DNA of 5,532 nt from Pedosphaera sp. (GTDB lineage: Bacteria; Verrucomicrobiota; Verrucomicrobiae; Limisphaerales; Pedosphaeraceae). The stretch is from the NCBI GenBank assembly GCA_028293265.1, contig JAQGPB010000281.1, positions 1 through 5,532 on the forward strand, in the 5' to 3' direction. This document shows positions 1,432 through 1,993 of the stretch, piece after piece; positions within the stretch are counted from its first letter, which is position 1; each line of letters begins with the position of its first letter. The notes beneath the pieces are model-generated. The model made no database searches. It was not told where the DNA came from and saw nothing but the letters and a program-made list of their open reading frames with translations. The position numbers were made by a program, and so were the translations under genes.

Positions 1432-1993
1432 AAACCAGCGAAACGGACACGGGCGGCTCAATTTGGGGACGTGCAACGGCAACGGGCACGCCGGCACGCC
1501 CAAGCGCATGAACCCGCCCGGTGAAGCGCGGGCGCTCGAACACGCCTGGCGCAATGATCCGCGCTGGCGCGGCGTGACGCGCAATTACACCGCGGAAAAA
1601 GTCCTGAAACTGCGGGGCACGTTGAAGATTGATTACACAATTGCCGACCGGATGTCGCGCAAGCTCTGGGGCCTGCTCAATGACGGGGCTTACGTCAATG
1701 CCTTGGGCGCGCTGAGCGGCAACCAGGCGGTGCAAATGGTCCAGGCGGGACTCAAGGCCATCTACCTGAGCGGTTGGCAGGTCGCGGCGGACAACAACCT
1801 CGCGGCCTCGATGTATCCTGACCAAAGTCTTTATCCTTCCAACAGTGTTCCGCTGGTGGTGCGCCGCATCAACAAGGCATTGCAACGCGCTGACCAGATT
1901 CAATGCCTCGGTGGCCAGGGCGATCTGGATATGTGGGCGCCGATTGTCGCGGATGCGGAGGCGGGCTTTGGCGGCGTGCTCAATGCCTACTAA
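1415..1993 (+). CDS. Isocitrate lyase N-terminal portion, up to the internal stop
   Basis: This is the 192-residue product expected if the TAA at 1991-1993 terminates translation. It begins with a Gly/Asn/Lys/Arg-rich leader of about 30 residues (MKRKNENQRNGHG onward). The canonical N-terminal region (DPRWRGVTRNYTAEKVLKLRG) follows, then the first part of the TIM barrel including SGWQVAAD, SMYPDQSLYP and the metal/substrate-binding stretch PIVADAEAGFGG. It lacks the catalytic KKCGHMGGK loop and more than half of the barrel, so it should have no lyase activity alone. It has the strong ribosome binding site at 1405-1410. An automatic annotation is likely to list it as a separate short isocitrate lyase gene. 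I regard it as one half of a single gene. Confidence 0.6.
   Translation: MKRKNENQRNGHGRLNLGTCNGNGHAGTPKRMNPPGEARALEHAWRNDPRWRGVTRNYTAEKVLKLRGTLKIDYTIADRMSRKLWGLLNDGAYVNALGALSGNQAVQMVQAGLKAIYLSGWQVAADNNLAASMYPDQSLYPSNSVPLVVRRINKALQRADQIQCLGGQGDLDMWAPIVADAEAGFGGVLNAY

What the first reader, a model, noticed from the sequence alone, without database searches (positions are those of the whole stretch)
1991..1993. Single in-frame nonsense codon in an otherwise intact isocitrate lyase
The reading frame is the same before and after TAA, and the missing residue aligns to a conserved Glu (E. coli ...NAFELM..., mycobacterial ...NVYELQ...). A single G-to-T change of GAA explains it. Everything downstream, including KKCGHMGGK, is conserved, and malate synthase beside it is intact. 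Loss of the lyase would leave the shunt broken, so this is a sequencing/assembly error, a very recent mutation in one strain, or recoding. The following context UAA-C (next codon CUG) is not an especially efficient terminator in some systems, but that alone proves nothing.
Basis: partly seen in the sequence, partly recalled or inferred. Interest (0 to 1): 0.7.

Follow-up and report, generated by a model that had tools for sequence, protein, structure and literature searches.

The report
Lone stop codon in isocitrate lyase
One bacterial enzyme gene on a short environmental DNA fragment carries a single stop codon in the middle of an otherwise well-preserved sequence, which is most simply a sequencing error or a very recent mutation, not a new way of reading the genetic code.

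Summary
TAA at 1991-1993 is codon 193 of an aceA (isocitrate lyase) frame that starts at ATG 1415 and continues in the same frame to TGA 2879-2881. Of 148 aligned homologues, 147 have Glu there and one begins after the site. Of 148 distinct related DNA stretches, 147 have GAA or GAG. The frame departs from the family at 1 of 188 near-invariant columns, the stop itself, and its branch is not accelerated. So this is an isolated point event in a gene under selection until now or nearly so: a consensus error or a very recent nonsense mutation. The tools could not separate these two: no whole genome is held, no reads are available, and no other copy at 90% identity or more was among the best 120 hits of three searches. 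Recoding is unsupported: no other in-frame TAA occurs inside the window's four genes, TAA ends the symporter frame, and no recoding element or stable RNA structure was found. A two-piece enzyme made by reinitiation at ATG 1997 is not excluded, but I see no Shine-Dalgarno-like sequence before that ATG. The finding is ordinary.

The parts
1..1431 (+). malate synthase A (aceB), 5' end cut off by the window start
   Evidence: TIGR01344 749.7 bits, positions 47-510/511; no internal stop
1415..1990 (+). aceA upstream piece, 192 codons from ATG 1415; overlaps the aceB end by 17 bases
   Evidence: NF011645 positions 8-165; GGAGG upstream of ATG
1991..1993 (+). in-frame TAA at a column that is Glu in relatives
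1994..2881 (+). aceA downstream piece in the same frame, ends with TGA 2879-2881; first ATG at 1997
   Evidence: NF011645 positions 169-429

Best explanation
An ordinary aceB-aceA (malate synthase, isocitrate lyase) gene pair of an environmental bacterium, probably Verrucomicrobiota (Limisphaerales/Pedosphaera-like), on what is probably a single 5532-base metagenome contig. One Glu codon reads as TAA. This is an isolated point event: either a wrong base in the assembled consensus (about 50%) or a true nonsense mutation so recent that no other decay has followed (about 42%). If the mutation is real, translation ends after 192 residues and this copy of the lyase is lost in that strain. Shown: frame, conservation and lack of other decay. 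Inferred: the cause, the host and the kind of source.
For: Same frame before and after. 147 of 148 aligned homologues have Glu at the column and the other lacks the region; 147 of 148 distinct DNA stretches have GAA or GAG. The window departs at 1 of 188 columns that are at least 98% conserved; of the 148 others, 92 depart at none, 41 at one, 12 at two and 3 at three. Terminal branch 0.046 against a median of 0.076 over 141 tips. The other three frames have no internal stop. No stop lies between query positions 27 and 452 in the matched stretch of any of 164 loci, of which 156 cover at least positions 60 to 440. Of the six distinct hits whose printed name shows an organism, five are Verrucomicrobiota (Pedosphaera, Limisphaerales and others).
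Against: No reads, coverage or second assembly were available, so neither branch is shown directly. Zero departures at 56 conserved malate synthase columns and at the other 187 aceA columns mean that the contig is not visibly error-rich, which weakens the error branch slightly. The sixth named hit is 'Candidatus Binatia' (P0184), and the N-terminal search names also Bacillota, Hydrogenedentes and others at lower identity, so the host call is an inference.
Confidence: 0.92

Rival explanations
1. Older pseudogene: the lyase lost its function some time ago and the stop is one sign of decay.
For: An internal stop is present.
Against: No second stop or frameshift; the other 187 of 188 near-invariant columns kept; short terminal branch; in a three-way comparison over 343 sites the window alone differs at 6, P0243 at 13 and P0122 at 30, with 20 sites where all differ.
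Confidence: 0.03
2. Two-piece enzyme: ribosomes terminate at TAA and reinitiate at ATG 1997, three bases further on, making an N and a C piece that assemble.
For: ATG follows closely (TAA CTG ATG); the C piece is well conserved. One relative, P0267, is also listed as starting at the equivalent Met, although its contig is only 1240 bases and could not be read.
Against: By eye, no Shine-Dalgarno-like sequence precedes ATG 1997 or ATG 2006. The split would fall inside a stretch conserved in solved lyases. The other 147 aligned homologues run through the site.
Confidence: 0.03
3. Recoding: UAA is read as Glu or another residue, by a changed code, a suppressor tRNA or programmed readthrough.
For: Downstream frame fully conserved.
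Against: Only one internal TAA in four frames of 476, 488, 227 and 488 codons, and TAA ends the symporter frame. No tRNA in the window, no Rfam recoding element. Two 100-base stretches, one after and one across the stop, fold no better than shuffles (175 and 197 of 200 shuffles fold at least as well). The Codetta paper says that in bacteria all known stop changes concern UGA (PMC8629427, passages). The verrucomicrobial recoding that I found in print is UGA to Trp in a tiny endosymbiont with 32% GC, where UAA and UAG stay stops (PMC8204192, passages); here aceB and aceA end in TGA. A suppressor tRNA elsewhere in the genome cannot be tested.
Confidence: 0.02

Closest known systems
Isocitrate lyase AceA, PF00463 / NF011645
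   Same: The two pieces together match the profile from end to end; 84% identity to P0122; best solved relative 3i4e, 620 bits
   Different: One in-frame TAA
G-to-T oxidation artefacts in sequencing (PMC12390751, abstract and outline seen)
   Same: A G>T change on the coding strand would produce this stop; 196 of 2916 possible G>T or C>A changes in these genes give a stop, against 559 of 15102 of all changes
   Different: The paper concerns human exomes; no reads here to test strand asymmetry
Bacterial stop-codon reassignments (UGA to Trp or Gly; PMC8629427 and PMC8204192, passages seen)
   Same: In-frame stop at a conserved residue; PMC8204192 is a verrucomicrobial case
   Different: Here UAA, a single occurrence, 57% GC, and UAA and UGA both end genes in the window

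Membership tests
Isocitrate lyase (PF00463, NF011645) | Full-length match to the family profile | tested here: met
   Two pieces, 245.2 and 456.8 bits, positions 8-165 and 169-429 of 430; the cut-off of 562 bits is for the whole protein and neither piece reaches it alone
Isocitrate lyase (PF00463, NF011645) | KKCGHMGGK catalytic motif (role recalled) | tested here: met
   Present after the stop; aligned in solved lyases
Isocitrate lyase (PF00463, NF011645) | Single uninterrupted reading frame | tested here: not met
   TAA at 1991-1993
Alternative genetic code | Codon recurs inside several conserved genes | tested here: not met
   One internal TAA in four genes; only 5532 bases could be looked at
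Alternative genetic code | Matching suppressor or altered tRNA in the genome | not testable with these tools
   No genome held; none in the window
Decayed pseudogene | Further disabling changes or relaxed constraint | tested here: not met
   1 of 188 conserved columns departs; branch not accelerated
Consensus error | Reads disagree with the consensus base | not testable with these tools
   No reads available

The most novel reading that the evidence does not exclude
The TAA is real and fixed in its lineage, and a working lyase is still made, either by reading UAA through or by reinitiating at ATG 1997 so that two pieces assemble.
Probability: 0.03. Interest if true: 0.6.

Novelty: already known. 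Interest (0 to 1): 0.1.

Why it matters
It matters little unless the stop is shown to be real and fixed. As it stands it is a caution that a single in-frame stop in one contig, with no sister sequence, cannot be read as recoding or as loss of the glyoxylate shunt.

Tried and rejected
Genome search for a second aceA: no genome is held. A viral-contig scan with P0122 gave 80 loci at 55-66% identity, useful only for the codon count. RNA structure at the stop: none. Rfam at E up to 1: one sub-threshold CRISPR-repeat match away from the site. Literature, search listings only unless said: 'isocitrate lyase + premature stop codon + metagenome' (4 papers); oxidation artefacts (10 papers; one abstract then read); stop codon reassignment (59 papers, 20 listed; passages of two read); 'Verrucomicrobi + glyoxylate + isocitrate lyase + malate synthase' (28 papers, 8 listed); 'premature stop codons + metagenome-assembled genomes + assembly errors + pseudogenes' (0 papers). 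Searches gave nothing that I judged, from titles and abstract starts, to bear on this case. A dN/dS test was not done because no close DNA relative was available. Before the tree, 9 of 149 rows were dropped for gaps and one of them, P0243, was put back. The malate synthase column check used the 44 of 164 loci in which malate synthase matched over more than 300 residues.

Full report
The observation. The TAA at 1991-1993 is present. It lies in frame in an isocitrate lyase that starts at ATG 1415, with GGAGG ending five bases before it, and the same frame runs on to TGA 2879-2881. The two pieces match NCBIfam NF011645 at positions 8-165 and 169-429 of 430, with 245.2 and 456.8 bits, so only the three positions around the stop are uncovered.

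Conservation at the site. In an alignment of 148 homologues (all those listed in the full-length and C-terminal searches, without the window's own piece) 147 have Glu at the column and one, P0267, starts just after it. These lists are the best 120 of 8000 scored in each search. Among the 119 other N-terminal hits listed, 101 have Glu, 16 have no residue, one has G (P0061) and one has N (P0095); both of these are followed by an alignment gap. At DNA level the codon is GAA in 99, GAG in 64 and AAC in one of 164 loci; the last is a lyase only 36% identical (L081). Counted once per distinct stretch these become 87, 60 and 1 of 148; L082-L084 repeat L064, L004 and L050.

No other decay. Of 188 columns that are at least 98% conserved, the window departs at one, the stop. 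Among the 148 other proteins 92 depart at none, 41 at one, 12 at two and 3 at three. In a tree of 141 sequences the window's terminal branch is 0.046 (33 tips shorter, median 0.076), and its root-to-tip distance is 0.281 against a median of 0.285. Against its nearest relatives P0243 and P0122, over 343 shared sites, it alone differs at 6, P0243 at 13 and P0122 at 30, and all three differ at 20. The malate synthase keeps all of 56 conserved columns, judged on 44 loci. None of the 164 loci has a stop between query positions 27 and 452 of its matched stretch; the eight with stops have them at positions 25-26 or from 453 on. Of the 164 stretches 156 cover at least positions 60 to 440. So the lyase was under selection until now or very recently.

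Where it comes from. No whole genome is held. The database lists both pieces of this gene (P0001, P0242) with one member each on a contig of 5532 bases, so the window is probably the whole contig. The nearest relatives are P0243 (89% over the C piece, on a 1120-base contig) and P0122 (84%). Of the six distinct hits whose printed name shows an organism, five are Verrucomicrobiota and one is Candidatus Binatia. The N-terminal search also names other phyla. The host is inferred, not tested with marker genes. No other copy at 90% identity or more was among the listed hits, so the databases searched cannot say whether the TAA is in the organism.

Mechanism. The stop lies one base from a Glu codon. 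Of all single-base changes in these four frames 559 of 15102 give a stop, and of G>T or C>A changes 196 of 2916. Either an error of that kind or a true mutation suffices. My split, about 50% error and 42% recent mutation, is a judgement and not a measurement.

Recoding. There is no in-frame TAA inside the other three genes, and TAA ends the symporter frame, though I did not check that frame's end against homologues. There is no tRNA in the window and no recoding element in Rfam. One 100-base stretch after the stop and one across it fold no better than their shuffles (z 1.08 and 1.71). The Codetta paper says that in bacteria all known stop changes concern UGA (PMC8629427, passages), mostly in clades of low GC. 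A verrucomicrobial case exists, Candidatus Organicella, but it is UGA to Trp in a 158-kb endosymbiont genome of 32% GC, with UAA and UAG still stops (PMC8204192, passages). This window has 57% GC; its aceA and response regulator frames end in TGA, as does aceB.

Split enzyme. ATG 1997 follows the stop after three bases, but by eye no Shine-Dalgarno-like sequence precedes it or ATG 2006. P0267 is listed as beginning at the equivalent Met on a 1240-base contig. That contig could not be read, so it may be a contig-end effect or an independent break. It is the one observation from a relative that leaves the split reading open.

Verdict. The case is ordinary until reads or a sister genome are examined.

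Noticed in passing
P0267: A 265-residue lyase listed as starting at the Met that follows the equivalent of this stop, on a 1240-base contig with two members; contig end or independent break not resolved.
   Followed up: partly
P0241: A 793-residue protein with both isocitrate lyase and malate synthase Pfam domains; a possible fusion of the two shunt enzymes.
   Followed up: no
window 1415-1431: aceB and aceA overlap by 17 bases, suggesting coupled translation.
   Followed up: no
window 3035-3718 (-) and 4064-5530 (-): A NarL/LuxR-type response regulator and a sodium:solute symporter (cut by the window end) lie on the opposite strand downstream.
   Followed up: no
window 3929-3966: Sub-threshold match to a CRISPR repeat family (RF01370, 25.3 bits against a cut-off of 39); likely chance.
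   Followed up: no
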